From a virus: a stretch of DNA of 41,945 bases. Under the pieces are notes generated by a model that did no database searches, was not told the DNA's origin, and worked only from the letters and a program-made list of their open reading frames with translations. The translations under genes were made by a program, and so were the position numbers. How positions within the stretch are numbered: the first letter of the stretch is position 1; each line of letters opens with the position of its first letter. This document shows, piece after piece, positions 620-41,106 of this stretch. Location: the IMG/VR virus record IMGVR_UViG_3300047320_000062, positions 1 through 41,945 of that record. One strand, given 5' to 3'.

Positions 620-641
620 CAGCTACTGAATTCAGTACCTG
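620..641. promoter_or_regulatory. Operator-like palindrome, copy 1
   Basis: Halves CAGCTACTGAA / TTCAGTACCTG. It starts 4 nt after the deaminase stop and ends 2 nt before the TTGCGT -35 box at 644-649, so a bound protein would sit against RNA polymerase at the promoter of the 715 gene. Confidence 0.8.
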
Positions 642-643
642 CC

Positions 644-673
644 TTGCGTTGGGCTCGTCGTTCGTGCTTAACT
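644..673 (+). promoter_or_regulatory. Early promoter for the 715 gene
   Basis: TTGCGT (644-649), then 17 nt to CTTAAC or 18 nt to TTAACT (about 667-673). The spacing from the palindrome to the -35 box is the same as at 1132, 1465 and 29129. Confidence 0.6.
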
Positions 674-714
674 CCGTCTCGTAAGCGAACGCACGGCACA
701 CAAGGGGAGAGACC

Positions 715-951
715 ATGGAACTGATTGAGCGCACGATCACTGCTGAGGAGCTTGAGACTGAGTACCGGGCTCGTGCGGGTCGTTGGAACGTCTACCGTGA
801 CGGTGGCCACTGGGACGGGATGACCGGCTACGGGTTCCCGTGGGCCATGGGCACGGCCGAGTGGATCGGTCGCCCCTCGTTCGTCCGCTCGCTGGTGGTT
901 GAGTTCATTGACGCTGAGGGTGGCGAGAAGGTAACCGCGAACCTCAAGTAG
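715..951 (+). CDS. Small early protein, unknown function
   Basis: 78 residues from ATG 715 with a good ribosome site (GGGGAGAGACC just upstream). The first half is charged and helical in character (ELIERTITAEELETEYRAR); the middle is rich in Trp, Gly and Tyr (RWNVYRDGGHWDGMTGYGFPW). No family was recognised. It is a single-gene unit with its own operator-linked promoter upstream and an intrinsic terminator directly after the stop, a layout shared by several neighbouring genes. That layout suggests a small regulatory or host-modifying protein made early, but this is inference. Confidence 0.7.
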   Translation: MELIERTITAEELETEYRARAGRWNVYRDGGHWDGMTGYGFPWAMGTAEWIGRPSFVRSLVVEFIDAEGGEKVTANLK

Positions 952-959
952 GACCAAGG

Positions 960-983
960 GCCCCCTCTCCGGAGGGGGCTTTC
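960..983 (+). terminator. Intrinsic terminator
   Basis: 8-bp stem GCCCCCTC (960-967) with GAGGGGGC (972-979), 4-nt loop TCCG, followed by TTTCC. It closes the single-gene unit 715-951. Confidence 0.85.
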
Positions 984-1107
984 CTGCGTTGACCTGCTGT
1001 GATTACGTTGGGTCAGGAGGCCGGCGAGTTGGTGACCCTACGTGACTTTTTTTAAGGTCGGCTCCCACCGTGACTAAAGTTAGGGCATGTCTGTCAACCT
1101 GTCAAGT

Positions 1108-1129
1108 CAGCTACTGAATTCAGTACCTG
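1108..1129. promoter_or_regulatory. Operator-like palindrome, copy 2
   Basis: Halves CAGCTACTGAA / TTCAGTACCTG, identical to copy 1. It ends 2 nt before the TTGCAT box at 1132. Confidence 0.8.
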
Positions 1130-1131
1130 CC

Positions 1132-1160
1132 TTGCATTGGGGCTCTCGGGCGGGTAGTGT
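1132..1160 (+). promoter_or_regulatory. Early promoter for the 1199 gene
   Basis: TTGCAT (1132-1137), 17-nt spacer, TAGTGT (1155-1160). Downstream TTCTTGTCAGC resembles the leaders at 1494, 2415 and 29158, so the transcription start region is conserved too. Confidence 0.72.
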
Positions 1161-1198
1161 TCTTCTTGTCAGCGAGACACCGACCAAGGAGAAACCAA

Positions 1199-1357
1199 AT
1201 GTTCTACGTCACTCTCAAGGACACCGAGACCGGCCAGACTTTCACCAACGAGTACGCTCACGAGCTTGACGCCGCGCGCCGGATCACGGACGGCGAGATC
1301 TACATCAACCTTGAGGTTGTCGCCCACAACGTGGACCGCAGCAAGTTCCGCCGCTAG
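1199..1357 (+). CDS. Small early protein, unknown function
   Basis: 52 residues. ATG 1199 is chosen because AAGGAG lies 7-12 nt upstream and because an earlier in-frame ATG (1157) falls inside the -10 box. The protein is soluble and mixed in charge (MFYVTLKDTETGQTFTNEYAHELDAARRI), ending in a basic tail (DRSKFRR). No family was recognised. It is a separate unit with an operator-linked promoter and its own terminator at 1366-1388, like the 715 gene. Confidence 0.7.
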   Translation: MFYVTLKDTETGQTFTNEYAHELDAARRITDGEIYINLEVVAHNVDRSKFRR

Positions 1358-1365
1358 GAGGGACG

Positions 1366-1388
1366 GCCCCCGAAAGGGGGCTTTTCCT
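1366..1388 (+). terminator. Intrinsic terminator
   Basis: GCCCCC (1366-1371), GAAA tetraloop, GGGGGC (1376-1381), then TTTTCCTTT. A classic stem, tetraloop and T-tail ending the 1199 unit. Confidence 0.9.
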
Positions 1389-1413
1389 TTGCCCTAGCTT
1401 GTGAACAAGTTCA

Positions 1414-1440
1414 ATGCATGGGCGTTACATCTATCTTTGG
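1414..1440 (+). repeat. 27-bp direct repeat, copy 1 (partner at 3073-3099)
   Basis: Begins ATGCATGGGCGTTACATC and ends TATCTTTGG. It matches 3073-3099 at 25 of 27 positions. Both copies are non-coding and lie about 25 nt after an intrinsic terminator; this one runs directly into operator copy 3. Possible activator or promoter site. Confidence 0.7.
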
Positions 1441-1462
1441 CAGGTACTGAATTCAGTAGTTG
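1441..1462. promoter_or_regulatory. Operator-like palindrome, copy 3
   Basis: Halves CAGGTACTGAA / TTCAGTAGTTG. Ends 2 nt before the TTGCGC box at 1465. Confidence 0.8.
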
Positions 1463-1464
1463 CC

Positions 1465-1493
1465 TTGCGCGGGGGAGCGTGAGCCTGTAGCGT
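1465..1493 (+). promoter_or_regulatory. Early promoter for the 1535 gene
   Basis: TTGCGC (1465-1470), 17-nt spacer, TAGCGT (1488-1493), then CTCCCTTGTCAGCAGG, the shared early leader. Confidence 0.72.
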
Positions 1494-1534
1494 CTCCCTT
1501 GTCAGCAGGAAACGGCGCAGGGGAGACGGCAGAG

Positions 1535-2353
1535 ATGTTCACCATCCGGTACAGCACCACCACGAACCACATCGCTGGTATCGAGTGCAGCACCAAGGGT
1601 GAGGGTTCCGAGTCGGGTGCAGTCGTCTCCTACTACGCTCAGAGCGCGTGCGGCACGCTGACCCGCTCCCGCCTCGCTCAGGGCAAGAGCTACGAGAGCC
1701 TTGCCGAGGCGCTTGAGGCCGCTCGTAAGACCGGTGGGCGCAAGCTCTGCAAGCGCTGCGAGAAGGCTGCTGAGGCTGCCCTTGAGGCCGCTGAGGCGCC
1801 GGTTGAGGACGAGGTGACCGAGACCCCCAAGGCACTCACGTTCAAGCGGACGCGGGACGCTCTTGAGCGCATGACCTACGTTGCCGAGTCTGAGCGCTTC
1901 CGCTACAACGTGCGGAGCGCCGGTAAGGGGCTGTGGGAGGTTGAGGTTTGGTCCCTCAAGCTCGTGGGGGAGATTGACCCGGTCGTGATCGCTGACAAGC
2001 AGATTGCCTCTCTCGTTGGCGTGTCCTACGCGGACGCCAAGGCTGAGGCCGAGAAGTACGAGGCTGAGCACAACGCTGAGCCGGTGAACGAGGACGAGGA
2101 GACCAAGACCATGCCGGACGCTCCCAAGGGCGCTCAGGAGCCCGCTGAGCCCCGTATCAAGTTCAAGGTTGACCGCATCCTGTCTTCCGGGATTGTGACC
2201 GGTGCGGACGGGTCCAAGGTCTATACGATGCTCGTTGAGGAGAGCGTGAGGGGGCCGGTGCGGCTGACGTTCCCGGAGAGCGAGGCTCTGTGGCTGTTCG
2301 CTGACATCATGGACAACGCAAAGGAGTTCCGGGCGTGGCAGCAAGAGGAGTGA
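1535..2353 (+). CDS. Early protein with N-terminal Cys-rich domain, unknown function
   Basis: 272 residues from ATG 1535. The open frame extends back to 1460, but that would put the start inside the promoter, and GGGGAGA sits at the right distance from 1535. Residues 1-75 hold SACGTLTRSRL and KLCKRCEKAAE, that is a CG motif and a CxxC that look like a small zinc-binding module, related in pattern to those in the 29200 and 30661 products. Residues about 70-95 and 170-210 are Ala/Glu-rich linkers; the C-terminal third (IKFKVDRILSSGIVTG) looks like a compact beta domain. No catalytic motif was seen. It may be a DNA- or RNA-binding early protein; function unknown. Confidence 0.75.
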   Translation: MFTIRYSTTTNHIAGIECSTKGEGSESGAVVSYYAQSACGTLTRSRLAQGKSYESLAEALEAARKTGGRKLCKRCEKAAEAALEAAEAPVEDEVTETPKALTFKRTRDALERMTYVAESERFRYNVRSAGKGLWEVEVWSLKLVGEIDPVVIADKQIASLVGVSYADAKAEAEKYEAEHNAEPVNEDEETKTMPDAPKGAQEPAEPRIKFKVDRILSSGIVTGADGSKVYTMLVEESVRGPVRLTFPESEALWLFADIMDNAKEFRAWQQEE

Positions 2354-2372
2354 CCTAGCCCACACGAGGGGG

Positions 2373-2394
2373 CAGGTACTGAATTCAGTATCTG
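2373..2394. promoter_or_regulatory. Operator-like palindrome, copy 4, in a terminator-like hairpin
   Basis: Halves CAGGTACTGAA / TTCAGTATCTG. The flanks extend the inverted repeat to GAGGGGGCAG... and ...CTGCCCTC, followed by TTTT (2400-2403), so the RNA would look like an intrinsic terminator for the 1535 gene. The right half also supplies the likely -35 (CAGTAT) of the next promoter. Confidence 0.8.
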
Positions 2395-2414
2395 CCCTCT
2401 TTTCGTGTTAGCGT
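2386..2414 (+). promoter_or_regulatory. Promoter for the 2450 gene, overlapping operator copy 4
   Basis: TAGCGT at 2409-2414 with the conserved TTCTCTTGTCAGCAGG leader. There is no TTG -35; 17 nt upstream lies CAGTAT (2386-2391) inside the palindrome, so a bound protein would cover the -35. Confidence 0.6.
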
Positions 2415-2449
2415 TCTCTTGTCAGCAGGAACGAGGGGCGGAGCGGGAC

Positions 2450-2803
2450 ATGTCGGGTTGGAAGATCGTTGGGGTTACGGACGAGTCCACCACGTGTGAG
2501 GTGTGCGGACGGGTTGAGCTTAAGAGCACGGTTGTGCTTGAGCTTGAGGACGGCTCGCGTCTGTACGCCGGTTCCTCGTGCGCTGCTCGTAAGGTCGGCG
2601 TCAAGGCGGCTGACATGCGGGGCTCGGTCAAGGCGTACCGCAACCGGCTTGAGGCCGCCCGGTGTGACTTCCCTAGCTACTTCCGGGGTCTGTTCGGCAA
2701 GACCCTTGAGCAGTACCTCAGGGAGTTCCCTGAGCACCGTGCGGTGCCTGAGGGCATGTACCGCCGGTTCATGCTCAAGCGGGGGTTTGACGTAGCAGCG
2801 TGA
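2450..2803 (+). CDS. Zinc-finger-like early protein
   Basis: 117 residues from ATG 2450 (GGAGCGGG upstream; an earlier in-frame start at 2405 lies in the promoter). The N-terminal half has CEVCGRVELKSTVVLELEDG and then SSCAARKVG, that is CxxCG, an LK-T-V-L strand, then GSxCAxxxxG. This layout is common in small actinophage and actinobacterial proteins and is probably a zinc-stabilised fold. The C-terminal half (SYFRGLFGKTLEQYLREFPEHRAVPEGMYRRFMLKRGF) is basic and helical. It may bind nucleic acid; the true role is unknown. Confidence 0.75.
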   Translation: MSGWKIVGVTDESTTCEVCGRVELKSTVVLELEDGSRLYAGSSCAARKVGVKAADMRGSVKAYRNRLEAARCDFPSYFRGLFGKTLEQYLREFPEHRAVPEGMYRRFMLKRGFDVAA

Positions 2804-2822
2804 CCTAGCCCACACGGGGAGG

Positions 2823-2844
2823 CAGGTACTGAATTCAGTATCTG
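2823..2844. promoter_or_regulatory. Operator-like palindrome, copy 5, in a terminator-like hairpin
   Basis: Halves CAGGTACTGAA / TTCAGTATCTG. Flanking GAGG and CCTC extend the stem, and GTTTCG follows, so the element can serve as terminator of the 2450 unit as well as operator of the next promoter. Confidence 0.8.
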
Positions 2845-2863
2845 CCTCGTTTCGTGCTACTGT
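2836..2863 (+). promoter_or_regulatory. Promoter for a leaderless mRNA (2870 gene)
   Basis: TACTGT (2858-2863) ends 6 nt before ATG 2870. CAGTAT (2836-2841, inside the palindrome) lies 16 nt upstream as a possible -35. A start at the usual distance would put the first base of the RNA at or next to the A of ATG. Confidence 0.55.
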
Positions 2864-2869
2864 TCTCAC

Positions 2870-3022
2870 ATGAACAGAGACGAGCTGAGCGAAGAGGCCC
2901 GGATCATGCTGGACCTGATGGAAATCGACGAGATCATAGAGCGCCGGAAGATGGTCCGGGAAGTGCTCGAAAGATCCTGGCTCACAGCAGAGATGATCCT
3001 CTTGCAAGAGCCCGACGAGTGA
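2870..3022 (+). CDS. Small acidic helical protein, probably leaderless
   Basis: 50 residues beginning MNRDELSEEARIMLDLMEID and ending LLQEPDE; strongly helical and acidic, with no recognised family. There is no Shine-Dalgarno sequence, but a -10 box lies 6 nt before ATG, which fits a leaderless mRNA as is common in actinobacteria. The gene is enclosed by operator copy 5 and a terminator at 3029-3057. Its size and character would suit a small protein that binds and modulates another protein; this is inference only. Confidence 0.65.
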   Translation: MNRDELSEEARIMLDLMEIDEIIERRKMVREVLERSWLTAEMILLQEPDE

Positions 3023-3028
3023 AGATGA

Positions 3029-3057
3029 CCCCCCGTCACTTAGGCGGGGGGCTTCTT
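3029..3057 (+). terminator. Intrinsic terminator
   Basis: CCCCCCG (3029-3035) pairs with CGGGGGG (3045-3051), 9-nt loop, tail CTTCTTTG. Ends the 2870 unit. Confidence 0.8.
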
Positions 3058-3072
3058 TGTGTCTGCACCTAG

Positions 3073-3099
3073 ATGCGTGGGCGCTACATCTATCTTTGG
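3073..3099 (+). repeat. 27-bp direct repeat, copy 2 (partner at 1414-1440)
   Basis: Begins ATGCGTGGGCGCTACATC and ends TATCTTTGG; two mismatches from copy 1. It starts the non-coding stretch 3058-3256, which also holds short inverted repeats: AAGGAT (3161) with ATCCTT (3175), and two CTTAAG sites. Confidence 0.7.
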
Positions 3100-3256
3100 T
3101 CTGGATGTAACGGCCATGCGCTTGAGGTCTAAGGGGTGAGCCCGGTTGTACGACTTAAGAAGGATCCCTGAATAATCCTTACGGCGCTCTTGTTGAACTC
3201 TTAAGAACCTCATAATTGGAGTACAGGGTTCCGGATCACAAGGCGGGGGTAGTGCA

Positions 3257-3607
3257 GTGTCGTCGTTCAGGGTCAGCATGACGCTTGGGGTTCTCGTCCG
3301 GGGCTCTGAGGGTGTCGCGTGGCGTCCGTGCCTGCGGGTGCCATCCCTGGGGCACGAGATCGTGATGAGCAACGAGGAGCTTGGGCCGCTCATGCGGGCT
3401 CAGGCAACGTTGGTAGAACGCTTCCTGACGCCCATGGGGGAGCCGTACGAGGGTTTCCGCATCGTGGCCCGTGACACGGCCTCAGGCGCCCTTGTGGCGC
3501 TCGTGAGGTGGGTCCGGTGTCCGGGCTCTGGCCGGTACCGCCCGGCGCCCGATGATGCGGCTCTGTTCCTGGCGTACGAGCATGGGGCGGGTCTCCTCGC
3601 TGCCTAG
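3257..3607 (+). CDS. Hypothetical protein
   Basis: 116 residues from GTG 3257, with GGCGGGGG about 8 nt upstream; ATG 3278 is a possible later start. The sequence (YEGFRIVARDTASGALVALVRWVRCPGSGRY) looks like a small beta-rich soluble domain; no family was recognised. It is not preceded by a palindrome, unlike the genes just before it, but by a 150-nt non-coding stretch. Codon use matches the neighbours, which supports it as a real gene. Confidence 0.6.
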   Translation: MSSFRVSMTLGVLVRGSEGVAWRPCLRVPSLGHEIVMSNEELGPLMRAQATLVERFLTPMGEPYEGFRIVARDTASGALVALVRWVRCPGSGRYRPAPDDAALFLAYEHGAGLLAA

Positions 3608-3612
3608 GTGGG

Positions 3613-3618
3613 TACGCT
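3613..3618 (+). promoter_or_regulatory. Putative -10 box for a leaderless mRNA (3625 gene)
   Basis: TACGCT ends 6 nt before ATG 3625, the same spacing as TACTGT to ATG 2870. No clear -35 was seen. Confidence 0.35.
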
Positions 3619-3624
3619 CGCGGC

Positions 3625-3840
3625 ATGGATGAGTTGATGCACGGGATTGCCCCGCCCAAGGTCAAGCCGTACAGCAGTGCGGCGGAGCTGCTTGCCAAGC
3701 TTGAGGGGCGTGCGGCTATGTGGGAGCGGCATGCGCGGGATGCCACGGACCGGGCGGCTGAATTCGAGAGCGCTGCTCAGCGGATTAGGGACGGCGCGTC
3801 AAGGGTGACCGTTGGGCGAACCACCTACACACTTGAGTAG
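3625..3840 (+). CDS. Small coiled-coil-like protein
   Basis: 71 residues from ATG 3625. The central part (AAELLAKLEGRAAMWERHARDATDRAAEFESAAQRIRDGA) is a long charged helix with heptad-like spacing, and the tail (RVTVGRTTYTLE) a short beta hairpin. No ribosome site is evident. No family was recognised. It starts 18 nt after the 3257 gene. Confidence 0.6.
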   Translation: MDELMHGIAPPKVKPYSSAAELLAKLEGRAAMWERHARDATDRAAEFESAAQRIRDGASRVTVGRTTYTLE

Positions 3841-4455: not shown

Positions 4456-4458
4456 GGG

Positions 4459-4517: not shown

Positions 4518-5426
4518 TTAGTCGGATGAGGTATCCGGCAACCGGGGCTCTTCTGCGTCCGTGAGGACGGCCGTAACGGCGGCTGCAATGCCGGTGCTTG
4601 AGAGGTTGTCGGGGTTGGTCACGTCGACCGTGACGGGCTCGCCGGTCGGCTCCTGCGTCTCAGGGTCGACGGTCTGAGCTGTGATGGTTGCCGGGTCCTT
4701 GCGGGAGCAGTCCTCAGCGCCGGACACGTCCACCTGTACGGCTGTCTCGTCGGTCAGTACGGCCGTCATGGTCATCATGTCGGCGTGCTCGTCGTACGAG
4801 ACGGCTAGGGGCTGATCGCTGACCCGCGACAGGAACATGTGCAGGGGGTTGAGCGGTTCCGGGATTTCAATGCCGGTGACGTGCTCAACGAATGAAGTGA
4901 CCGGCCCCTTGGGCGCCTTGCGCTTGGGCTTGGCCGTTGCCTTGGGCTTGGACCGGGGCTTGGGCTGCTCGGTCGCCCTGGGCTTGGTCGGCGTGGCCTT
5001 GGCCTTGTGCTTGCCCTTGGTTGCCTTGGCGTGCTTGCGCTTCTTGGCGTGCTTGTGCTCGGCCTTGGCAGGCTTGTCCGGCGTGCGGTGCGCCTTGGTC
5101 TCAGCGAGGGGCTGAACGGGCACCTGAGGGGCTTTGGTGTCCTCGTCGGCCGGTTGGGTGTCCTCGTCGGCAACGGGGCTCTCAGGGGCTTTCTGCGGCT
5201 CGTCGGCGTCACTCGCTGCGGGTGTGGGCAGACGGCTACCGGGTCGGCCCTCAGTGCTCTCCTCACCGGGCACAATGTCAGCCGGTATTACTGACTGTTC
5301 GTCGGTGTGCGCGTCGTGGTCGGCGCGTCCGAGGAAGAACGCGAGGGGGAGCGAGGCAGCGAGCATGCCGTACGCGACCTTTCCCCCTAGTGGTATGTGC
5401 TGCTTGGTTGCTGAGCGCGTGCCCAC
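4518..5426 (-). CDS. Membrane-anchored, Lys/Pro/Ala-rich surface protein
   Basis: 302 residues from a GTG at 5426. Residues about 14-32 (GKVAYGMLAASLPLAFFLG) form one membrane segment after a basic N-terminus, predicting a cytoplasmic N-terminus and an outside C-terminus. Residues about 35-100 are acidic and Pro-rich; about 100-170 are extremely Lys/Ala/Pro-rich (HKHAKKRKHAKATKGKHK), as in cell-wall-spanning spacers. The last 120 residues form a folded acidic domain with one Cys, family unknown. It is one of only two minus-strand genes and lies back to back with the integrase, the usual place for genes expressed in the lysogen. A role in superinfection exclusion or lysogenic conversion is plausible but inferred. 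Confidence 0.75.
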   Translation of the reverse strand: MGTRSATKQHIPLGGKVAYGMLAASLPLAFFLGRADHDAHTDEQSVIPADIVPGEESTEGRPGSRLPTPAASDADEPQKAPESPVADEDTQPADEDTKAPQVPVQPLAETKAHRTPDKPAKAEHKHAKKRKHAKATKGKHKAKATPTKPRATEQPKPRSKPKATAKPKRKAPKGPVTSFVEHVTGIEIPEPLNPLHMFLSRVSDQPLAVSYDEHADMMTMTAVLTDETAVQVDVSGAEDCSRKDPATITAQTVDPETQEPTGEPVTVDVTNPDNLSSTGIAAAVTAVLTDAEEPRLPDTSSD

Positions 5427-5590: not shown

Positions 5591-7324
5591 ATGACAACTG
5601 GGTTGGCAGGAGCTATCGACGTAGTCGCAGGGGCGGGCGCCGCACAGACGGCGGCGGTCTACGTCCGGCAGAGCCGTAAGAAGAATGACGGCTCTGAGGC
5701 ATCCCCCGCTGTTCAGCTTGAGGAGTCAGTCAAGAAGGCTAACGGCCTTGGGCTGCTCTGTCCGTCGACTTACCACTATCGGGACGTAGGCATTTCCGGC
5801 TATGACCCTAGGGCCGAGCGTCCCGACTTTGACCGCATGCTTAGGGATGCTCGTGCCGGTCGGTTCAGTCACGTAATCGTCTACTACATGAGCCGGTTCT
5901 CTCGGCAAAAGCCCCTTGAGGTCTTGGGGGTTGTCCGTGAGCTGTGGGCCTATGGGGTCACGATTACCTCAGTGACTGAGGGCACGTTCATCCCGGACGA
6001 TTTCGGCAGTCTGATTTCCCTTCTCGCTCGCCTTGAGGGCAACCACCAAGAGAGCAAGCTCAAGAGTCAGAACGTCCGGAAGACCAAGAAGAAAGCCCGT
6101 GACCTAGGCGGCTATGTGGGCGGTCCGGCCCCGTACGGGTTCATAGCGGAAAAGGTGCTCAAGGACGGCGTAGCCATTCACACGCTCAAGCCTCACCCGG
6201 TTGAGGGGCCGATCCTCGCTGACCTCGTCTCGCACATCCTTTCGAATATGGATGCTAAGCCGGATAAGCACGGGAAGCACCCGGCAAGCATCCTCAGCGC
6301 CGTTGAATGGATGAACGCGAACCCCAAGGCCATTCCCAAGCGTGCTGCGTCATGGAACGAGTCGTCAGTCACCCGCATCCTCATTGACCCGCGCATTGCC
6401 GGGTTCGGGGCCGACTACGTGTATTACAAGGCGGCTGACGAGGAGCTACGGCGTAAGACGCGTGAGTACGTCATTCAGCGCGACGAGGACGGCCGTGAGG
6501 TGGTCGCACACCCCGCGATCGTTGACCCTGCGGATTGGTACACCCTCAGGGGTTGGATGAAGTCCCGTAAGCGTGCCGGTCGTGCGTCTAACGGTGCCTC
6601 GCTGCTTGCCGGGTCGGGGCTGCTCGATTGTGAGTGCAGCAAGGGCATGACCCGGTTCGGTCCCAAGGGTGGGGCAGTCAACTACCGGTGCCCTCGTTCG
6701 CGCACGGATGACGTGGGCCGGACGCATGAGGGGGGCAACTCGATTGCGGCTCACCAGGTAGACGAGTGGCTTGCCCGGCGGGTCATGAACCGCATTCGCT
6801 CGGCAGACTTTGACGATGACCCTGAGACGTTCGTCCTCCTGCGTGAGGCGACGAGGCGGTATGCACAGCGCATAGAAGCCCCTCAGACGGCCGGTGAGCG
6901 TCAAGAGCTTGTCCAGGCCCGTGCGTCGGACGTTCGCGCGCTAGAGGACCTGTACGACCGCGAGGAAAACGGGGACTATGACGACCCGGTTGGCCGGAAG
7001 CGGTTCCGTGAGCGTAAGGACAAGATCAACGCTCGGATCAATGCGGCTGCTCTCCGCTTGGCGGAGCTTGATCAACTCGACATGCCCGCGCTCCCGTTGG
7101 ACTCTTGGCGGGGTGAGGCGGACGAGGATCCGATAGGGGAAGGCTCTTGGTGGCACGCTGCCACGCTGGACGAGCGGCGTGCGTTCCTGACGCTGTTCGT
7201 GGACAAGGTGACGGTCAAGAAGGCAGCGCACCGGGGAGGCAACTTCCTGGGGGTCGACTATGACGCCGATGCCCGTCTGTCGCTTGAGTGGGCTAAGCCC
7301 CCGACGGATGACGAGGACGAATGA
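5591..7324 (+). CDS. int: Large serine integrase, phiC31 type
   Basis: 577 residues. The N-terminal resolvase domain (about 20-165) carries the nucleophile Ser28 in VYVRQSRK and the typical ISGYDPRAERPDFDRML and YYMSRFSR motifs. A recombinase domain follows (YVGGPAPYGF, RILIDPRIAGFGADYVYYK), then a zinc-ribbon domain around residues 345-375 (DCECSKG ... YRCPR) with a helical insert, and the C-terminal WAKPPTDDEDE. That tail and VGRKRFRERKDKINARI match my memory of phiC31 Int, which is a little longer. It performs attP x attB recombination; reversal needs a directionality factor, for which the 32396 product is a good candidate. Confidence 0.95.
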   Translation: MTTGLAGAIDVVAGAGAAQTAAVYVRQSRKKNDGSEASPAVQLEESVKKANGLGLLCPSTYHYRDVGISGYDPRAERPDFDRMLRDARAGRFSHVIVYYMSRFSRQKPLEVLGVVRELWAYGVTITSVTEGTFIPDDFGSLISLLARLEGNHQESKLKSQNVRKTKKKARDLGGYVGGPAPYGFIAEKVLKDGVAIHTLKPHPVEGPILADLVSHILSNMDAKPDKHGKHPASILSAVEWMNANPKAIPKRAASWNESSVTRILIDPRIAGFGADYVYYKAADEELRRKTREYVIQRDEDGREVVAHPAIVDPADWYTLRGWMKSRKRAGRASNGASLLAGSGLLDCECSKGMTRFGPKGGAVNYRCPRSRTDDVGRTHEGGNSIAAHQVDEWLARRVMNRIRSADFDDDPETFVLLREATRRYAQRIEAPQTAGERQELVQARASDVRALEDLYDREENGDYDDPVGRKRFRERKDKINARINAAALRLAELDQLDMPALPLDSWRGEADEDPIGEGSWWHAATLDERRAFLTLFVDKVTVKKAAHRGGNFLGVDYDADARLSLEWAKPPTDDEDE

Positions 7325-8357: not shown

Positions 8358-8433
8358 CTAGGTGTAGCTCAGTAGGCAGAGCGCGCGGTTTGGGACCGTG
8401 AGGCCGTAGGTTCGAAACCTGCCACTTAGACCA
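8358..8433 (+). tRNA. tRNA-Pro(TGG)
   Basis: Acceptor CTAGGTG/CACTTAG, D stem GCTC/GAGC, anticodon stem CGCGG/CCGTG with loop TTTGGGA (TGG at 8391-8393), T stem GTAGG/CCTGC, discriminator A and encoded CCA (8431-8433). The CCA runs into operator copy 6 at 8432. Confidence 0.92.
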
Positions 8434-8453
8434 CGTACTGAATTCAGTACCTG
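8432..8453. promoter_or_regulatory. Operator-like palindrome, copy 6
   Basis: Halves CACGTACTGAA / TTCAGTACCTG. It lies between the end of tRNA-Pro and the stop of the minus-strand endonuclease VII-like gene (8455), so transcription from both sides meets here. Confidence 0.78.
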
Positions 8454-8454
8454 C

Positions 8455-8853
8455 TTATGAGAGCAAGTCGAGTGCCTTGCTAAGGCGCTTAGGGTCGTGC
8501 TTGAAATGGCCCAAGGCTCGCGCACAGGGCTTGCAGATGACTCCGCGAATCTCGCCGGTCTCCTTGTCCTGGTAGACGCTGTTCGGGTCATCCTCGCTTC
8601 CCTCCTTGCCGCAGATGTCGCAAGGGGATGTGCGTAGCTCAACGTACTCGTCAAGGGTGAGCCCAAGGCTACGTGCCGATTCCTTGATCTTTGAGTCACG
8701 GTGGCTATGGGGCTTGCTTTGCATGCGGTTGCGCTGAGCGTCTGCCTTGCATTGCTTGCACTGTGAGCCGTAGCCGTCCGCACGGTTAGCGTCCTTGCCA
8801 AAGGCCGTTAGTGGCTTGTCCTCGTTGCACGCTGTACATACCTTAGTTTCCAT
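8455..8853 (-). CDS. Endonuclease VII family protein, probably catalytically inactive
   Basis: 132 residues. The N-terminal module CTACNEDKPLTAFGKDANRA with CKQCKAD is the zinc-binding lead seen in many actinophage recombination endonuclease VII proteins. The C-terminal CDICG...TGEIRGVICKPCARALGHFKHDP matches the endonuclease VII fold. The DHDH stretch that usually precedes the TG-x-RG motif is replaced by SVYQDKE, and the usual CN of the last CxxCN is CA, so the nuclease centre seems lost while the zinc fold is kept. It is one of two minus-strand genes and is flanked on both sides by operator palindromes (8432, 8874). ATG 8853 lies 6 nt after TAGCCT, suggesting a leaderless mRNA. It may work as a DNA-binding protein rather than a nuclease. 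Confidence 0.82.
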   Translation of the reverse strand: METKVCTACNEDKPLTAFGKDANRADGYGSQCKQCKADAQRNRMQSKPHSHRDSKIKESARSLGLTLDEYVELRTSPCDICGKEGSEDDPNSVYQDKETGEIRGVICKPCARALGHFKHDPKRLSKALDLLS

Positions 8854-8873
8854 AGCCTCAGGCTATCACCTAG

Positions 8874-8895
8874 CACGTACTGAATTCAGTAACTG
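8874..8895. promoter_or_regulatory. Operator-like palindrome, copy 7
   Basis: Halves CACGTACTGAA / TTCAGTAACTG. On the minus strand it overlaps the -35 position (17 nt from TAGCCT) of the promoter for the endonuclease VII-like gene. Confidence 0.78.
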
Positions 8896-11715: not shown

Positions 11716-11737
11716 CAACTACTGAATTCAGCAACTG
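11716..11737. promoter_or_regulatory. Operator-like palindrome, copy 8
   Basis: Halves CAACTACTGAA / TTCAGCAACTG, 1 nt after the terL stop and 26 nt before the portal start. No -10/-35 pair was seen, so this is a stoperator-like position. Confidence 0.72.
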
Positions 11738-15799: not shown

Positions 15800-15964
15800 T
15801 TGCCACCGCGTAAGAAGGTTGCGACCGCTACCCCCTCGTGTCCGGATTCCTGCGGTTCCTCGTCTCGGGTTGAGAGCTACAACGCTTCTCGCCCGGACGG
15901 GGAACCGGTTCAGGTGGTCCGGTGCATTGAGTGCGGTGCTCAGTCGGTCGATAGCACTTCCTGA
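15800..15964 (+). CDS. Small zinc-ribbon-like protein
   Basis: 54 residues from TTG 15800, with AAGGAG 6-12 nt upstream. Two Cys pairs, PSCPDSCGSS and VRCIECGAQS, are separated by about 25 residues, as in a minimal zinc ribbon. The N-terminus is basic (PPRKKVATAT). The TGA stop (15962-15964) lies within operator copy 10. Its place between major capsid and connector is often held by head decoration or small accessory proteins; function unknown. Confidence 0.7.
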   Translation: MPPRKKVATATPSCPDSCGSSSRVESYNASRPDGEPVQVVRCIECGAQSVDSTS

Positions 15965-15976
15965 ATTCAGGAGTTG
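15955..15976. promoter_or_regulatory. Operator-like palindrome, copy 10, containing a stop codon
   Basis: Halves CACTTCCTGAA / TTCAGGAGTTG. The left half contains the TGA of the zinc-ribbon gene; the right half supplies AGGAG, the ribosome site of the connector gene starting at 15982. Confidence 0.72.
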
Positions 15977-18151: not shown

Positions 18152-18173
18152 CACTTCCTGAATTCAGTACCTG
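18152..18173. promoter_or_regulatory. Operator-like palindrome, copy 11
   Basis: Halves CACTTCCTGAA / TTCAGTACCTG, 1 nt after the tail tube stop. Confidence 0.75.
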
Positions 18174-26937: not shown

Positions 26938-26959
26938 CAACTACTGATTTCAGTAACTG
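26938..26959. promoter_or_regulatory. Operator-like palindrome, copy 13 (variant centre)
   Basis: Halves CAACTACTGAT / TTCAGTAACTG. The centre reads GATTTC in place of GAATTC. It follows the tail gene stop and is followed directly by the terminator at 26964. Confidence 0.72.
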
Positions 26960-29104: not shown

Positions 29105-29126
29105 CAGCTACTGAATTCAGCACCTG
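29105..29126. promoter_or_regulatory. Operator-like palindrome, copy 14
   Basis: Halves CAGCTACTGAA / TTCAGCACCTG. Ends 2 nt before TTGCGC (29129), exactly as copies 1-3 do 27 kb away. Confidence 0.8.
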
Positions 29127-29199: not shown

Positions 29200-30555
29200 A
29201 TGAGCAGCATCACGGTTCAGGAGATCGCGGAGCTTGGTCACACCTTTGCGGCGGTCCGCAACGGCAAGGTGATCCACGTCAAGCGCGCCGACAACAACAA
29301 GACGGTCTGCGGCAAGGTGACCACGGGGGACGTGCTCCGGTCGGACGCCACGGACGCGAACATCTGCGTTGCCTGCCGCATCGTCATCCAGAAGGGTCAA
29401 GAGTCTCAGGTTGAGTTGACTGAGGTTGATGCAGCCGGTATCGTGTCCAACCTCATGGAAAGCCTCACCAAGGGGCAGACCGAGACCGAGGGGAACACGG
29501 AAATGGCTGAGACCAAGAGCACGGACAAGCACGCTGAGACCGTTGAGCAGATCGCTGCGAACATCGAGCGTGCCGGTTCGCTCGCTGAGGCTGAGAACAC
29601 GGACGGGCTTGAGGAGCTTGGTAAGGAGACTGAGACCCTGATCTCTGGTCTTCCGACGCGCGGCAAGACTCCGGCGGGTGACAAGACGTGGGCTCAGTTC
29701 AAGCAGGAGTCTCGGAACGCGTTCCGTGACGCTGCCACGGTCGCCGAGAAGCCCAAGGCCGCTGAGGTGGTCGTGCTTGAGACCACTGAGGACTACCGCG
29801 AGGTTGAGGGCATGGATGCTCTCATTGACGAGGGCGCGGGGGTCATCTCGGAGGGTGTCACCCTTCACCTCAAGGCTTCTCAGACGGCGTACAACCTCGG
29901 TCGCAAGCTCCTTGACGTTCGCCTCAAGCTCAAGGTCAAGGGTGCCCCGGACCTCAAGGCCAAGTCTCAGGCGTACCGCGACGCGTCCGGCGCCCTCAAG
30001 GCAAAGGCAATCATGCAGCTCCGTGAGGGGGGCGTTGACGAGTTTGACGCTCAGGAAGCTGCTGAGAAGCTGTGGAAGTCCATGAACAACCAGACGGGCG
30101 ACGTGCTCGCGGACTACGCCAAGGAGCTTGACGGCGTGCGGCGCGCTGACTTTGACAGCCTCTTCACTGAGGTTGCCAAGGCTCACCCGGCACTTGAGCC
30201 GTCTGAGGCCGTGTCCGCGTACTACGGCATTGACCTCGTCGGCCCCCGCGAAAAGGCCCGTCTCAAGGCCAAGGCAAAGGCTGAGCTTGCCGCTAAGGCT
30301 CAGGCGGCCCTTGAGGCCGGGAAGACGGACGAGGCCGAGGAGCTTGAGCACGAGGCTGAGGCACTGGACGGCAAGAAGGAACTCACCCTTGCCGAGAAGG
30401 TTGCCGCTGAGGGCAAGAAGCTGACCAAGGCCGTGAAGGTGCTGGACGAGGTTGAGCCGGACGAGCTGACCGACGAGGAGCGCAAGGCGGCGCGCGATCA
30501 GTACAACGCGCTGCGGGATCAGCTCAAGGCTCTCGCGGACAAGTTCGACCTGTAG
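29200..30555 (+). CDS. Large early protein: zinc-binding N-terminus and long charged helical body
   Basis: 451 residues from ATG 29200 with GAGGGGGA upstream (an in-frame start at 29068 lies before the promoter). Residues 1-70 show GKVIHVKRADNNKTVCGKVTT and ICVACRIV, an H-x(n)-CG-x(n)-CxxC pattern also seen in the 30661 product. The next 100 residues are Glu/Thr-rich. From about 190 on a helical domain follows (EGMDALIDEGAGVISEGVTLHLKASQTAYNLGRKLLDVRL), and the last 120 residues are Lys/Glu/Ala-rich coiled coil. No enzyme motif was seen. Strong promoter, good ribosome site and biased codons suggest high expression. Function unknown. Confidence 0.78.
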   Translation: MSSITVQEIAELGHTFAAVRNGKVIHVKRADNNKTVCGKVTTGDVLRSDATDANICVACRIVIQKGQESQVELTEVDAAGIVSNLMESLTKGQTETEGNTEMAETKSTDKHAETVEQIAANIERAGSLAEAENTDGLEELGKETETLISGLPTRGKTPAGDKTWAQFKQESRNAFRDAATVAEKPKAAEVVVLETTEDYREVEGMDALIDEGAGVISEGVTLHLKASQTAYNLGRKLLDVRLKLKVKGAPDLKAKSQAYRDASGALKAKAIMQLREGGVDEFDAQEAAEKLWKSMNNQTGDVLADYAKELDGVRRADFDSLFTEVAKAHPALEPSEAVSAYYGIDLVGPREKARLKAKAKAELAAKAQAALEAGKTDEAEELEHEAEALDGKKELTLAEKVAAEGKKLTKAVKVLDEVEPDELTDEERKAARDQYNALRDQLKALADKFDL

Positions 30556-30556
30556 G

Positions 30557-30578
30557 CAGTTGCTGAATTCAGGAACTG
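30557..30578. promoter_or_regulatory. Operator-like palindrome, copy 15, joined to a terminator
   Basis: Halves CAGTTGCTGAA / TTCAGGAACTG. It starts 1 nt after the stop of the 29200 gene, and its last base is the first base of the terminator stem at 30578. Confidence 0.75.
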
Positions 30579-32317: not shown

Positions 32318-32351
32318 GGGGTCAGTTACTGAATCCAGTAGCTGACCCCCT
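32318..32351. promoter_or_regulatory. Operator-like palindrome, copy 16, in a terminator-like hairpin
   Basis: The 22-bp core is 32323-32344, halves CAGTTACTGAA / TCCAGTAGCTG (centre GAATCC). GGGGGT and ACCCCC flank it, giving a 15-bp stem GGGGGTCAGTTACTG / CAGTAGCTGACCCCC with AATC loop and a TT end: both operator and possible terminator between motif copy 3 and the directionality factor. Confidence 0.75.
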
Positions 32352-32395: not shown

Positions 32396-33085
32396 ATGGC
32401 TCTGCGCATCTTTGACACTGACCCGGACGCTAAGCCCAAGCCCAAGGTCACTTACGACAACGAGTTTGCGTTCCGGTTCCGGTCGGGCAAGATGAACGGC
32501 CGTAAGCCTATGTCTCTGGACGCGTGGCGTGTCACGACGGGTGACAAGGTGGTTGCCGACTCTATCGCTCAGCTTATGGGCGGTACTCCTCACGAGTGGG
32601 AGACCAGCAAGGATGATTTCCTTGAGGTGATGACCGGCAAGGATTCCGTTGAGGTTGTTATCTCCGGTGTCAAGGCCATTAAGTCGACGCTCATTCTGTG
32701 GGGTCAGCGTGGCCCTATTCATGAGTGCGATGGTGTTACGTCGCTTCTCGCGGATGACTACGGACAGCCGTGCGGTTGCCCTCAGCTTCTCGCGGAGCGC
32801 AAGAACATGGCCAAGTCTGGCCGTGGTCCTGCTCCGAACACCAAGGTTGAGTTTCGCCTCGCTGAGGATTATGAGCTTGGCCTTGGTCAGTTCGTGTCTA
32901 CGTCGTGGGAACTCGTCAAGGTTCTGCACGAGATTGAGAACGACCTTGAGCGGGTCGGGGGTGAGGCTCTTTGTGAGCTGTCCCTTGAGCTTGTGGAGTA
33001 TGACCACTCGACCTATGGCCGTGTGAGCTATCGCAAGCCGGTTATCAAGGTGATCAAGTCTTGGAACGAGGCGATTGCGGAGTGA
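32396..33085 (+). CDS. Recombination directionality factor, phiC31 Gp3-like
   Basis: 229 residues from ATG 32396 (AGGGGAGAG upstream; an in-frame ATG at 32351 lacks a ribosome site). It follows the pattern I know from phiC31 Gp3 and its many Streptomyces relatives: FRFRSGKMNGRKPMSLDAWRVTTGD, GGTPHEWETSKDDFLEVMTGKDSVEVVISG, HECDGVTSLLADDYGQPCGCP (paired Cys), AERKNMAKSGRGPAPNTKVEFRLAEDYELGLGQF. In phiC31 this protein binds the integrase and turns it towards attL x attR excision. Here the gene is 25 kb from int, in the early operon, as in phiC31. Confidence 0.85.
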   Translation: MALRIFDTDPDAKPKPKVTYDNEFAFRFRSGKMNGRKPMSLDAWRVTTGDKVVADSIAQLMGGTPHEWETSKDDFLEVMTGKDSVEVVISGVKAIKSTLILWGQRGPIHECDGVTSLLADDYGQPCGCPQLLAERKNMAKSGRGPAPNTKVEFRLAEDYELGLGQFVSTSWELVKVLHEIENDLERVGGEALCELSLELVEYDHSTYGRVSYRKPVIKVIKSWNEAIAE

Positions 33086-33595: not shown

Positions 33596-33617
33596 CAGGT
33601 ACTGAATTCAGAAGCTG
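33596..33617. promoter_or_regulatory. Operator-like palindrome, copy 17
   Basis: Halves CAGGTACTGAA / TTCAGAAGCTG. It ends 7 nt before the ATG of the 33625 gene; its end GCTGAGGGG may double as ribosome site. Confidence 0.75.
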
Positions 33618-36831: not shown

Positions 36832-36864
36832 GGTCAGCTACTGAATTCAGTAGTTGGCCCCTCT
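36832..36864. promoter_or_regulatory. Operator-like palindrome, copy 18, in a longer inverted repeat
   Basis: Core 36835-36856, halves CAGCTACTGAA / TTCAGTAGTTG. Flanking GGGGT and GCCCCT extend the repeat, followed by CTTGCG. It separates the primase-helicase gene from the polymerase gene. Confidence 0.75.
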
Positions 36865-38740: not shown

Positions 38741-38753
38741 AGAACGTTCTCTA
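38738..38753. repeat. Perfect 16-bp palindrome over the polymerase stop codon
   Basis: TAGAGAACGTTCTCTA, including the TAG stop of the polymerase gene. Not of the 22-bp operator family; no spacer as in LexA boxes. Confidence 0.6.
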
Positions 38754-38780
38754 TGGTCCGTGCATGTACACGCATACATT

Positions 38781-38825
38781 CACGCTCCGTATACCGCCGG
38801 CATGGATTTTGGTATACGGAGCGTG
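38781..38825 (+). repeat. Conserved-loop hairpin element, copy B
   Basis: Perfect 15-bp stem CACGCTCCGTATACC (38781-38795) with GGTATACGGAGCGTG (38811-38825), loop GCCGGCATGGATTTT (38796-38810). The strongest of the three copies. Confidence 0.82.
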
Positions 38826-38930
38826 ACCACGTGAGGCAGCTACCAAATTAAGGGGGTGAGCTGCGTCACAGTGGGTGTCACTCCGTCAGTTCCCTTACGT
38901 GGCAAGGTGAATCGGGGTTCAAGTGCGACC

Positions 38931-38952
38931 CAGCTACTGAATTCAGTACCTG
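38931..38952. promoter_or_regulatory. Operator-like palindrome, copy 19
   Basis: Halves CAGCTACTGAA / TTCAGTACCTG, identical to copies 1 and 2 but with no TTGC box after it. It lies in the 590-nt gene-free stretch. Confidence 0.75.
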
Positions 38953-38953
38953 A

Positions 38954-39274
38954 GTCCGGCAAACCGGGCATCCATGGTTATCTGCCCGTGACCCCGTAAT
39001 ACCTAAGGCGTACGGCGCCCCTTGCCCTCTCGTTCCACGGTCGTCATACACGTTTCGCCTTGGAATCAACGTACAACCCATATCGGACATGGTGGGTCTA
39101 ACGCCTTGTTCGTCGGTTGATTCGAACGTTCACCCCCGCATAAGTTCCGTCCTGCAACGACGGAGCAAAGCGCTAGCCCCGGCGGTGCACATCCTCAGAC
39201 CGGCTTGGTTCGCCATGCCTGTCATCAGATGTGACCCGAGTCACGACGGCTAGCTAGCGCTCTCGCCTGGTCTG
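38954..39274. other. Non-coding stretch before the sigma-like gene; candidate origin or RNA
   Basis: About 320 nt without a convincing gene. It contains short palindromes (GAACGTTC at 39125, GTGAC-CCGA-GTCAC at 39232, GCTAGCTAGC near 39250) and T/C-rich runs. The region 38741-39332 as a whole is the longest gene-free stretch and stands between the polymerase and sigma-like genes, a place suitable for a replication origin or a long regulated leader. A 70-codon minus-strand frame (38878-39090) runs across operator 19 and was not accepted. Confidence 0.35.
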
Positions 39275-39294
39275 AGGAAGCCCTTGCGCTCAAG
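39275..39294 (+). promoter_or_regulatory. AGGAAGCCCTTGCGCTCAAG motif, copy 5
   Basis: 38 nt before the ATG of the sigma-like gene, so that protein may act on its own promoter. Confidence 0.65.
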
Positions 39295-39332
39295 AACGAG
39301 CACAAGACCGAATCAGACCGGGAGAGCCCCAA

Positions 39333-40142
39333 ATGATCAACCTCACCGCTCAGCAGATCGCCGATGCCAAGAACAAGGACCTTGACGCCATTACGGCAGT
39401 CATCAAGGAGACTGAGGAGCGAGTCAGTCAGCTTGCCCGGCACTACGCCACGACGAGCGGACGCACTGATTACACGCTCATGGAAGACCTTGCGCAGACC
39501 GGCCGCATTGCGGTCTGGGAAGCTCTCGACCGGTTCAAGGGAACTGAGGTAGCGCAGTTCTTCACGTTCGTTGACAAGACGCTCAAGGGCGTTATGAGCG
39601 ACGAGCGCAAGGAAGAGCAGCGCCCCGGAGTTTCCCGCGCGGTTGCCGCTGACTTTGAAAAGGCGCTCCGCATTGCCGACCATGACCCGTACGTTGCGGA
39701 ATTCCTCGTCACGACGACTGAGGTTATGGGTAAGCGCAGGATGAGCGCTGACATGGCTTACGCGGCTCGTCTGTCTTGGATGGGCATTGACTACCTTGAC
39801 GCTCCGCTTGGCGGGGACGAGTCGCCGCATGACGCGACGCTCGCGGACACGATCGCTGACAAGGTCGGCGTCTCTGAGGATCTGCTTGAGCCGTCCGACT
39901 ACGTCAAGGCTGCTCGGGAAGCGACGCGCAAGAAGGTTTGGTATGTGCTCAAGAAGATGGGTTCTCAGCACCGGCACGTCCTGAGTGCGCTTACCGGCAT
40001 TGCGCCTTACGACTACTACGGCACTGAGAATGACGCTGAGCTTGCGGAAGCGATGGGGGTTGACCCGATCCGCGTCACGTCGATTCGCTCGCGTGCCAAG
40101 GACCGTTTCGCTGAGCTGTGGATTGAAGCGTTCGGCAAGTGA
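39333..40142 (+). CDS. Phage-encoded sigma-70-like factor
   Basis: 269 residues from ATG 39333 (GGGAGAGCCCC upstream). Region 2-like part: VSQLARHYATTSGRTDYTLMEDLAQTGRIAVWEALDRFKGTEVAQFFTFVDKTLKGVMSDER, matching the DLxQxGxIAxWxAxxRF...F.TFV sigma-2 plan. Region 4-like part near the end: VLKKMGSQHRHVLSALTGI...NDAELAEAMGVDPIRVTSIRSRAKDRFAELW, a helix-turn-helix of sigma-4 type with the usual AEAMGVDPxRVxxIRxRA. Between them is a linker of about 80 residues. It probably directs host RNA polymerase to phage promoters; the six GGAAG-CTTGCGCTC motifs are its candidate targets. The next gene overlaps its stop by 4 nt. Confidence 0.85.
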   Translation: MINLTAQQIADAKNKDLDAITAVIKETEERVSQLARHYATTSGRTDYTLMEDLAQTGRIAVWEALDRFKGTEVAQFFTFVDKTLKGVMSDERKEEQRPGVSRAVAADFEKALRIADHDPYVAEFLVTTTEVMGKRRMSADMAYAARLSWMGIDYLDAPLGGDESPHDATLADTIADKVGVSEDLLEPSDYVKAAREATRKKVWYVLKKMGSQHRHVLSALTGIAPYDYYGTENDAELAEAMGVDPIRVTSIRSRAKDRFAELWIEAFGK

Positions 40143-40426
40143 GGGAGCGTCGTCCTCGTCCTGCTCGGCCCCGTAAGAGTCGGGCGGGACGTACGAGGCG
40201 CATCCGAGAGCGCAAGAGTCCTGAGGGGGCGTACAAGCGCTCTGAACTGTTCGCACGATGGCACGGGGCTTGCTGCTACTGCGGCGCCCCTGCCGAGCAC
40301 GTGGACCACATCAAGCCCCTGTCACGGGGCGGGCGGGATGTTCTCGCCAACGTCGTACCGGCATGCGCTGACTGCAACTACGCAAAGAGCGCGTTGACCT
40401 TGGCCCAATGGGCAGCAACTTTCTAG
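40139..40426 (+). CDS. HNH endonuclease
   Basis: 95 residues from GTG 40139 (GTGA overlap). A strongly basic N-terminus (RERRPRPARPRKSRAGRTRRIRERK) precedes a complete HNH domain: CCYCGAPAEHVDHIKPLSRGGRDVLANVVPACADCNYAKSALTLAQW, with both CxxC zinc pairs, the catalytic HxxH and Asn. It is like the free-standing HNH proteins of many phages; it may cut phage or host DNA or act in recombination. All catalytic residues are kept. Confidence 0.9.
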   Translation: MRERRPRPARPRKSRAGRTRRIRERKSPEGAYKRSELFARWHGACCYCGAPAEHVDHIKPLSRGGRDVLANVVPACADCNYAKSALTLAQWAATF

Positions 40427-40437
40427 GGGAGAGAGCA

Positions 40438-40596
40438 ATGCAGACCTACACCACTCGTAACGGCGGAACCCTTGAGGTCATCCGCAACGGTGCGCTCACG
40501 GACATGCACGTCAAGAACGAGGCGGGGGAGACGGTAGCCACGGTGGTCAAGCCTCACGCTGAGGTGGTCCCGCTCATCCTGGCTCTGACCAAGTGA
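40438..40596 (+). CDS. Small hypothetical protein
   Basis: 52 residues from ATG 40438, with GGGGAGAGAG upstream; the in-frame GTG/ATG upstream at 40408 lies in the HNH gene. MQTYTTRNGGTLEVIRNGAL then TDMHVKNEAGETVATVVKPHAEVV reads as a small beta sheet followed by a helix. Family unknown. It overlaps the frame of the next gene by 4 nt. Confidence 0.65.
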   Translation: MQTYTTRNGGTLEVIRNGALTDMHVKNEAGETVATVVKPHAEVVPLILALTK

Positions 40597-40646
40597 CCTA
40601 CGCGGAAGCCAAGCGCCGCATTTCTGAACGACCCAAGGGAGAAACC

Positions 40647-40901
40647 ATGCCGATCAACGTCACCCGAGAGACCAAGGCCACGCTTACCGCCTCGTGCGGC
40701 GGTCGGGTCCTGTCTTGGACCAATGACAAGGAACCGAACACGGTGAGCATTGCGGTTCCGGGGGACCGGGCCAAGCTGACCGCTCGTGAGGCTCGTGAGC
40801 TTGCTGCATGGTTGAACGAGGTTGCGGCTGAGCTTGCCGGTACGGCTACCCGTCCGGCCGCTCCTCGTCCGTCGGCTGAGCGGGTGTACCCGTGGCGCTG
40901 A
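40647..40901 (+). CDS. Small hypothetical protein
   Basis: 84 residues from ATG 40647, chosen for the strong AAGGGAG 8 nt upstream; GTG 40593, overlapping the previous stop, would add 18 residues. MPINVTRETKATLTASCGGRVLSWTNDKEPNTVSIAVPGDRAKLTAREARELAAWLNEVAAEL suggests a small beta domain plus a helix, with a Pro/Ala-rich tail. No family recognised. Confidence 0.62.
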   Translation: MPINVTRETKATLTASCGGRVLSWTNDKEPNTVSIAVPGDRAKLTAREARELAAWLNEVAAELAGTATRPAAPRPSAERVYPWR

Positions 40902-41056
40902 ACGAGGAAATGACTGACACGGAGTACGTAGCCGAACGAGCGGACACGTTCCGCGCGGCTCGCGCTCTGCTTGATCAGTTCGAATGGAACGAGCCCCTGA
41001 GTCCTGAGGACGTAACCGGGGTGGCAATGTTCCTGGCAGGCGACACCACCAAGTAG
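40892..41056 (+). CDS. Small acidic hypothetical protein
   Basis: 54 residues from GTG 40892, overlapping the previous gene by 10 nt. [20 protein letters not shown] then [25 protein letters not shown] reads as two helices. Function unknown. It ends 20 nt before operator copy 20. Confidence 0.58.
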
Positions 41057-41068
41057 GCAAGCATTCCG

Positions 41069-41106
41069 GGGCGGCTCAGCTACTGAATTCAGTAGTTGGG
41101 TCGCCC
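41069..41106. promoter_or_regulatory. Operator-like palindrome, copy 20, in a terminator-like inverted repeat
   Basis: Core 41077-41098, halves CAGCTACTGAA / TTCAGTAGTTG. Flanks GGGGCGG and TCGCCCC extend the inverted repeat to about 38 nt, followed by TCGTTTGGGG. It lies 18 nt before thyX. Confidence 0.78.

What the first reader, a model, noticed from the sequence alone, without database searches (positions are those of the whole stretch)
620..41098. Genome-wide family of twenty 22-bp palindromes at gene junctions
Seen in sequence: 20 sites at 620, 1108, 1441, 2373, 2823, 8432, 8874, 11716, 14786, 15955, 18152, 24550, 26938, 29105, 30557, 32323, 33596, 36835, 38931 and 41077, consensus half CAgnTACTGAA. 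All lie at or within a few nt of gene ends; none is inside a gene body. Known: the phiC31 repressor binds conserved inverted repeats in intergenic regions all over its genome, and mycobacteriophage L5 has stoperators. Inference: this is an operator/stoperator network keeping the prophage silent, here extended through both early and late genes.
Basis: partly seen in the sequence, partly recalled or inferred. Interest (0 to 1): 0.9.

Follow-up and report, generated by a model that had tools for sequence, protein, structure and literature searches.

The report
phiC31-type repressor operators, new specificity
A phage related to the classic Streptomyces phage phiC31 carries twenty copies of one 22-base palindrome between its genes, almost certainly the landing sites of its own phiC31-type repressor; the system is of a known kind, but comparison with seven relatives shows that a subset of the sites is built into RNA hairpins that look like transcription terminators, at the same gene junctions in phages whose sites have different sequences.

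Summary
All are intergenic or clip a stop codon.

The window is a complete temperate phage of the phiC31 supergroup. It encodes, in the phiC31 position, a protein of Pfam PF25746 (phiC31 repressor c; E=4e-46). Each of seven annotated relatives has its own 22/23-bp dyad (9-26 copies), of related but different sequence, at orthologous junctions (75 of 97 junction cells occupied). Operator divergence tracks repressor divergence (r=0.79, p=0.0004). The sites are therefore phiC31 'CIR'-type operators of a new specificity. phiC31 too has late-gene sites, so that part is not new.

There are two kinds of site. In 15 the halves do not covary as an RNA stem: plain DNA operators. Some abut a sigma70-like promoter; most late ones sit 0-3 nt after a stop codon, where a repressor roadblock is the likeliest role but is not shown. 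In five (2373, 2823, 32323, 36835, 41077) the operator lies inside an 18-21 bp hairpin; the primase/polymerase junction has this form in seven of eight phages.

L5-type stoperator membership fails: those sites are 13-bp, asymmetric, bound by an unrelated monomer.

The parts
620..641 (.). operator, early region; TTGCGT-like -35 follows, -10 weak
1108..1129 (.). operator directly upstream of a sigma70-like promoter (TTGCAT-17-TAGTGT)
1441..1462 (.). operator directly upstream of a sigma70-like promoter (TTGCGC-17-TAGCGT)
2373..2394 (.). operator inside a 20-bp hairpin (class B), followed by a TAGCGT -10
2823..2844 (.). operator inside an 18-bp hairpin (class B), followed by a TACTGT -10
8432..8453 (.). 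operator starting in the CCA end of tRNA-Pro (8358-8433), next to the stop of a leftward endonuclease VII-like gene
8874..8895 (.). operator upstream of the leftward endonuclease VII-like gene
11716..11737 (.). operator 1 nt after the terminase large subunit stop codon
14786..14807 (.). operator containing the stop codon of the scaffold gene, before the major capsid gene
15955..15976 (.). operator after a small ORF that follows the major capsid gene; weakest of the set (29 bits)
18152..18173 (.). operator 1 nt after the major tail protein stop codon
24550..24571 (.). operator directly after the 754-aa tail-region gene
26938..26959 (.). operator directly after the gene upstream of the endolysin
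29105..29126 (.). operator at the putative repressor promoter (TTGCGC-17-TACTGT)
29200..30555 (+). phiC31-c-type immunity repressor, 451 aa, PF25746
   Evidence: E=3.6e-46; position syntenic with phiC31 c
29503..30555 (+). possible short repressor isoform from an internal ATG (about 38 kDa), the PF25746 core
   Evidence: weak Shine-Dalgarno, inference
30557..30578 (.). operator 1 nt after the repressor stop codon; a separate terminator-like hairpin follows
32323..32344 (.). operator inside a 20-bp hairpin (class B) between exonuclease and RDF genes
32396..33085 (+). recombination directionality factor homologue (45% identity to phiC31 gp3)
33596..33617 (.). operator 7 nt upstream of a small early gene
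36835..36856 (.). operator inside a 19-bp hairpin (class B) between primase and DNA polymerase genes
38931..38952 (.). operator between DNA polymerase and sigma-factor-like genes
41077..41098 (.). operator inside a 21-bp hairpin (class B) upstream of thyX
5591..7324 (+). serine integrase (38% identity to phiC31 Int)

Best explanation
The 20 palindromes are the operators of the phage's own phiC31-c-type repressor (29200-30555), which presumably binds each 22-bp dyad as a symmetric oligomer, one subunit per CAGnTACTGAA half. In the lysogen it shuts promoter-linked sites (1108, 1441, 2373, 2823, 29105; probably 620), including its own promoter. At sites without a promoter, mostly 0-3 nt behind stop codons in the late genes, it most likely acts as an elongation roadblock against leaky read-through (stoperator-like; about 0.55). 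Five sites (2373, 2823, 32323, 36835, 41077) have a second layer: the operator forms the upper part of an 18-21 bp RNA hairpin that should act as an intrinsic terminator whether or not repressor is bound (about 0.6). Shown: sites, matrix, gene positions, repressor family, co-variation, conserved junctions, stem statistics. Inferred: binding, oligomeric state, roadblock, termination.
For: PF25746 hit E=3.6e-46 at the phiC31 repressor position and profile match to seven relatives' repressors. Each relative has its own dyad family in the same register; 75 of 97 orthologous junction cells carry a site; operator distance tracks repressor distance, r=0.79, p=0.0004. IMG/VR relatives with 70-75% identical repressors keep the same operator, 18-19 copies. 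Core halves do not covary as an RNA stem. Promoter-like elements at fixed distance from five sites. Class B stems: 16 of 18 cores fully paired against 0 of 60. Serine integrase and RDF present. phiC31 is reported to have many dispersed repressor sites (PMC4557955).
Against: No binding, transcription or lysogeny data exist for this phage. The AlphaFold model is poor (pLDDT 66) and shows no recognisable DNA-binding fold. Overall genome relatedness also explains part of the operator-repressor correlation (primase r=0.50). Promoter calls are by eye. Class B hairpins lack clear U tails.
Confidence: 0.85

Rival explanations
1. The palindromes are primarily RNA hairpins (intrinsic terminators or RNA processing sites) at gene ends, not protein operators.
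For: Five sites form long stems with paired cores. In seven Streptomyces genomes the identical core is the fully paired hairpin right behind tRNA genes.
Against: For the whole set the halves pair no better than shuffled halves; 15 of 20 window cores contain mismatches that break the stem while each half keeps the consensus. Some sites abut promoter-like elements rather than ends of operons. Many lie inside the late operon, where termination would be harmful.
Confidence: 0.07
2. The sites are operators of another DNA-binding protein (phage or host), not of the PF25746 repressor.
For: No DNA-binding fold could be recognised in the repressor model; binding was not tested.
Against: phiC31 c is the known binder of the equivalent sites in phiC31 (PMC4557955 and own knowledge); operator divergence tracks repressor divergence; a site lies at the repressor promoter in all eight genomes; consensus changes between phages in one host genus, which a host protein would not explain.
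Confidence: 0.06
3. The promoter-less late sites have no roadblock role: they are repressor reservoirs or homology blocks for module exchange, and only the promoter-linked sites regulate.
For: Roadblock action has not been shown here. At 2373/2823 two near-identical operator copies flank a gene that is missing in G005 and G006, where one copy remains, so sites can act as recombination joints.
Against: Placement 0-3 nt after stop codons along the late operon and preservation at the same junctions in distant phages with different operator sequences suit an effect on transcription better.
Confidence: 0.3

Closest known systems
phiC31 conserved inverted repeats (CIRs) and repressor c (Pfam PF25746)
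   Same: Repressor family and map position; many intergenic dyads in early and late regions; same dyad register (CTACTnA shared between the consensus halves); shared junctions (terL/portal, pre-endolysin, pre-repressor, primase/pol, pol/sigma, pre-thyX).
   Different: Repressor core only 25% identical; operator half CAGnTACTGAA instead of AnCCTACTCAC, so a new specificity. One N-terminal H-C-CxxC module instead of two.
Mycobacteriophage L5 / cluster A stoperator system
   Same: Many dispersed repressor sites in short intergenic spaces and at promoters (PMC9283540, PMC6550527).
   Different: L5 sites are 13-bp, asymmetric and oriented with transcription, bound by a small monomeric HTH repressor; here sites are symmetric 22-bp dyads and the repressor is a PF25746 protein.
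Streptomyces phage R4 repressor-stoperator system
   Same: Streptomyces phage with the repressor between lysis and early genes and many intergenic sites (PMC10276819).
   Different: R4 belongs to another genome group (BD); its site sequences were not compared here.

Membership tests
phiC31 c-repressor / CIR system | Repressor of family PF25746, downstream of the virion genes and transcribed rightward | tested here: met
   E=3.6e-46 against a cut-off of 27 bits (158 bits); syntenic position
phiC31 c-repressor / CIR system | Many dispersed intergenic inverted repeats in early and late regions | tested here: met
   20 sites, none in gene bodies; phiC31 itself 16 by the same scan
phiC31 c-repressor / CIR system | Operators at early promoters and at the repressor's own promoter | tested here: inconclusive
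   sigma70-like elements next to 1108, 1441, 2373, 2823, 29105; no transcript data
phiC31 c-repressor / CIR system | In-frame repressor isoforms | tested here: inconclusive
   Internal start at residue 102 with a weak Shine-Dalgarno; similar internal starts across the family
phiC31 c-repressor / CIR system | Repressor binds the repeats | not testable with these tools
   needs EMSA or ChIP
L5-type stoperator system | 13-bp asymmetric sites oriented with transcription | tested here: not met
   Sites are 22-bp dyads with equivalent halves
L5-type stoperator system | Small (about 183 aa) monomeric HTH repressor with stoperator domain | tested here: not met
   451-aa PF25746 protein; no Pfam HTH hit
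L5-type stoperator system | Repressor-dependent block of elongation | not testable with these tools
   needs a reporter assay
Intrinsic terminator hairpin | Stem maintained by paired changes | tested here: inconclusive
   Not met for 15 of 20 window sites; met for the five class B sites and their orthologues

The most novel reading that the evidence does not exclude
phiC31-group phages use bifunctional operator-terminators: at fixed junctions (primase/polymerase, upstream of thyX) the repressor dyad is the apex of a terminator stem, so one element stops transcription as RNA in lytic growth and as repressor-bound DNA in lysogeny, whereas operators inside operons are kept imperfect so that they do not terminate.
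Probability: 0.5. Interest if true: 0.6.

Novelty: new member of a known kind. Interest (0 to 1): 0.42.

Why it matters
It adds a new operator specificity to the phiC31 group and lines up eight repressor/operator pairs that share a register and junctions, which makes the recognition code of PF25746 (no solved structure) open to direct test. The split into mismatched and hairpin-embedded operators gives a testable account of how a read-through late operon can carry palindromes without being terminated by them.

Tried and rejected
Chance or low-complexity origin: rejected by matrix and shuffles. RNA hairpins as the general explanation: rejected by the shuffled-half test. A perfect-palindrome search first seemed to show that Rowa lacks the family; a matrix allowing central asymmetry found 17 sites. 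AlphaFold model of the repressor with 11 sequences: pLDDT 66, no PDB fold match, so no DNA-binding element could be named. A distant prophage search in genome contigs with the alignment failed for lack of conserved stretches; the pattern scan found no prophage with repeated sites, only single host sites. A genus-wide host search was not possible by handle. The primary phiC31 papers are not held, so details on CIRs beyond PMC4557955 rest on memory. Hairpin avoidance in class A sites (0 fully paired against 3-5 expected, p 0.003-0.05 in most versions of the test) is suggestive only: orthologues are not independent and phiC31's late sites are nearly perfect palindromes.

Full report
OBSERVATION. 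All twenty 22-mers are at the stated coordinates. A symmetric matrix from their 40 half-sites (CAGnTACTGAA) scores them 29-40 bits; the next best place in the window scores 9.0 and the best of 100 Markov shuffles 11. So the list is complete and not chance. Nineteen overlap no protein-coding gene; 14786 holds the stop codon of the scaffold gene; 8432 begins in the CCA of tRNA-Pro. Only 13% of random placements are that clear of genes. The window is a complete, circularly assembled phage genome (87-bp terminal direct repeat; a virus record).

WHAT THE PHAGE IS. Nucleotide matches are to Rowa, Shady, Shaeky, Sycamore, Nesbitt, Euratis and phiC31: the phiC31 supergroup. Gene order agrees (terminase to endolysin, repressor, exonuclease, RDF, primase, polymerase, sigma-like factor, thyX). 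The serine integrase is 38% identical to phiC31 Int and the RDF 45% identical to phiC31 gp3, so the phage is temperate by content.

THE BINDING PROTEIN. The ORF at 29200-30555 is in the repressor position and matches PF25746 'Streptomyces phage repressor protein c' at E=3.6e-46; all seven relatives have the same family there, and the two sets of repressors align by profile. Single-sequence tblastn finds nothing in the phage collection, which shows divergence rather than absence. Nesbitt's repressor is the bare PF25746 core and Nesbitt still has operators, so the core should carry DNA binding (inference). Most others have an N-terminal H-C-CxxC module (two in phiC31) and an internal start with a Shine-Dalgarno-like sequence near the edge of the core (window M102, about 38 kDa; phiC31 M189 and M300, about 54 and 42 kDa). 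phiC31 is reported to make three isoforms (PMC4557955); their masses of 74, 54 and 42 kDa are from memory.

OPERATORS IN RELATIVES. Each genome has its own family: phiC31 16 sites, Rowa 17, Shady 24, Shaeky 26, Sycamore 21, Nesbitt 12, Euratis 9. All are 22-bp dyads in one register (23 bp in Euratis and L132). Of 97 orthologous junction cells in eight genomes 75 hold a site (5.4 expected for uniform placement; the junction list was drawn up partly from the window). The pre-repressor, primase/pol and pol/sigma junctions have one in 8/8 genomes, the tRNA-Pro end in 5/5. Operator distance follows repressor distance (r=0.79, p=0.0004, 10 phages), more closely than primase distance does (8 phages: r=0.68 for repressor, 0.50 for primase). 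IMG/VR relatives with 70-75% identical repressors keep the window consensus, 18-19 sites each in the two longest records.

TWO CLASSES. If the core were an RNA stem, the halves should covary; observed pairs equal shuffled pairs in the window, G005 and G006. Yet flanks are more symmetric than chance in the window (p=0.0035), phiC31 (0.0005), Euratis (0.005) and Shady (0.02), though not in G005 or G006 taken whole. The reason is a subset: 2373, 2823, 32323, 36835 and 41077 have 6-7 of 7 flank pairs, 18-21 bp stems and MFE of -28 to -36 kcal/mol. Over five related genomes such sites have fully paired cores in 16 of 18 cases, against 0 of 60 for the rest (orthologues counted apart; in the window alone 4/5 against 0/15, Fisher p=0.001 by hand). 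At 32323 the orthologues show changed pairs that still pair. At the primase/pol junction 7 of 8 genomes have 7/7 flank pairs, upstream of thyX 5 of 6 have at least 6, against 32 of 145 sites overall, although the operator sequences differ. These look like terminators without a clear U tail, with the operator at the apex.

PROMOTER LINK. Sites 1108, 1441 and 29105 are followed at 25 nt by TAGTGT, TAGCGT or TACTGT with TTGC.. 17 nt upstream of it; 2373 and 2823 have such a -10 at 13-14 nt, so that the operator would cover the -35; four of these five share TTGTCAGC just downstream, a word found nowhere else in the window. Late sites have no such elements, and most sit 0-1 nt behind a stop codon.

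MECHANISM. Most likely: repression of early promoters including the repressor's own; roadblock at promoter-less late junctions; an added hairpin terminator at five junctions. The first is strongly inferred by homology with phiC31, the second is the model for dispersed sites in L5 (PMC9283540) and R4 (PMC10276819) but untested here, the third rests on stem statistics.

COMPARISON. It works like, and belongs to, the phiC31 c/CIR system. It is not an L5 stoperator by membership. What may be new is the operator-in-terminator class at conserved junctions.

Noticed in passing
L143, L144, L146, L147, L150, L152, L153 (Streptomyces genome contigs): The same 22-mer core, fully paired and with extended stem, is the hairpin behind host tRNA-Pro(CGG) (three called by ARAGORN, three more with the same tRNA 3' end) and tRNA-Arg(CCT) genes. 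By my estimate well under one such match is expected in Streptomyces DNA; whether host terminators and phage operators are related is open.
   Followed up: partly
window 2350-2900: Two near-identical operator copies with about 60 bp of similar flank enclose a 132-aa gene that is absent from G005 and G006, where one copy remains: operators as recombination joints for gene gain or loss.
   Followed up: partly
window 29200-29500; phiC31 c (L119:19274-21322): c-type repressors carry 0, 1 or 2 N-terminal H-C-CxxC (zinc-binding-like) modules; in phiC31 the internal starts at M189 and M300 would give forms with one and no module, which fits the reported three isoforms.
   Followed up: partly
window 1166, 1499, 2419, 29163: TTGTCAGC occurs only four times, each just downstream of an operator-linked promoter-like -10: a possible conserved leader element.
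   Followed up: no
window 8432-8895: A leftward endonuclease VII-like gene is bracketed by two operators exactly 442 bp apart, a distance kept in many IMG/VR relatives.
   Followed up: no
window 4518-5426 (-): A leftward 302-aa ORF with coding-like GC3 and no PHROG match in the otherwise rightward early region.
   Followed up: no
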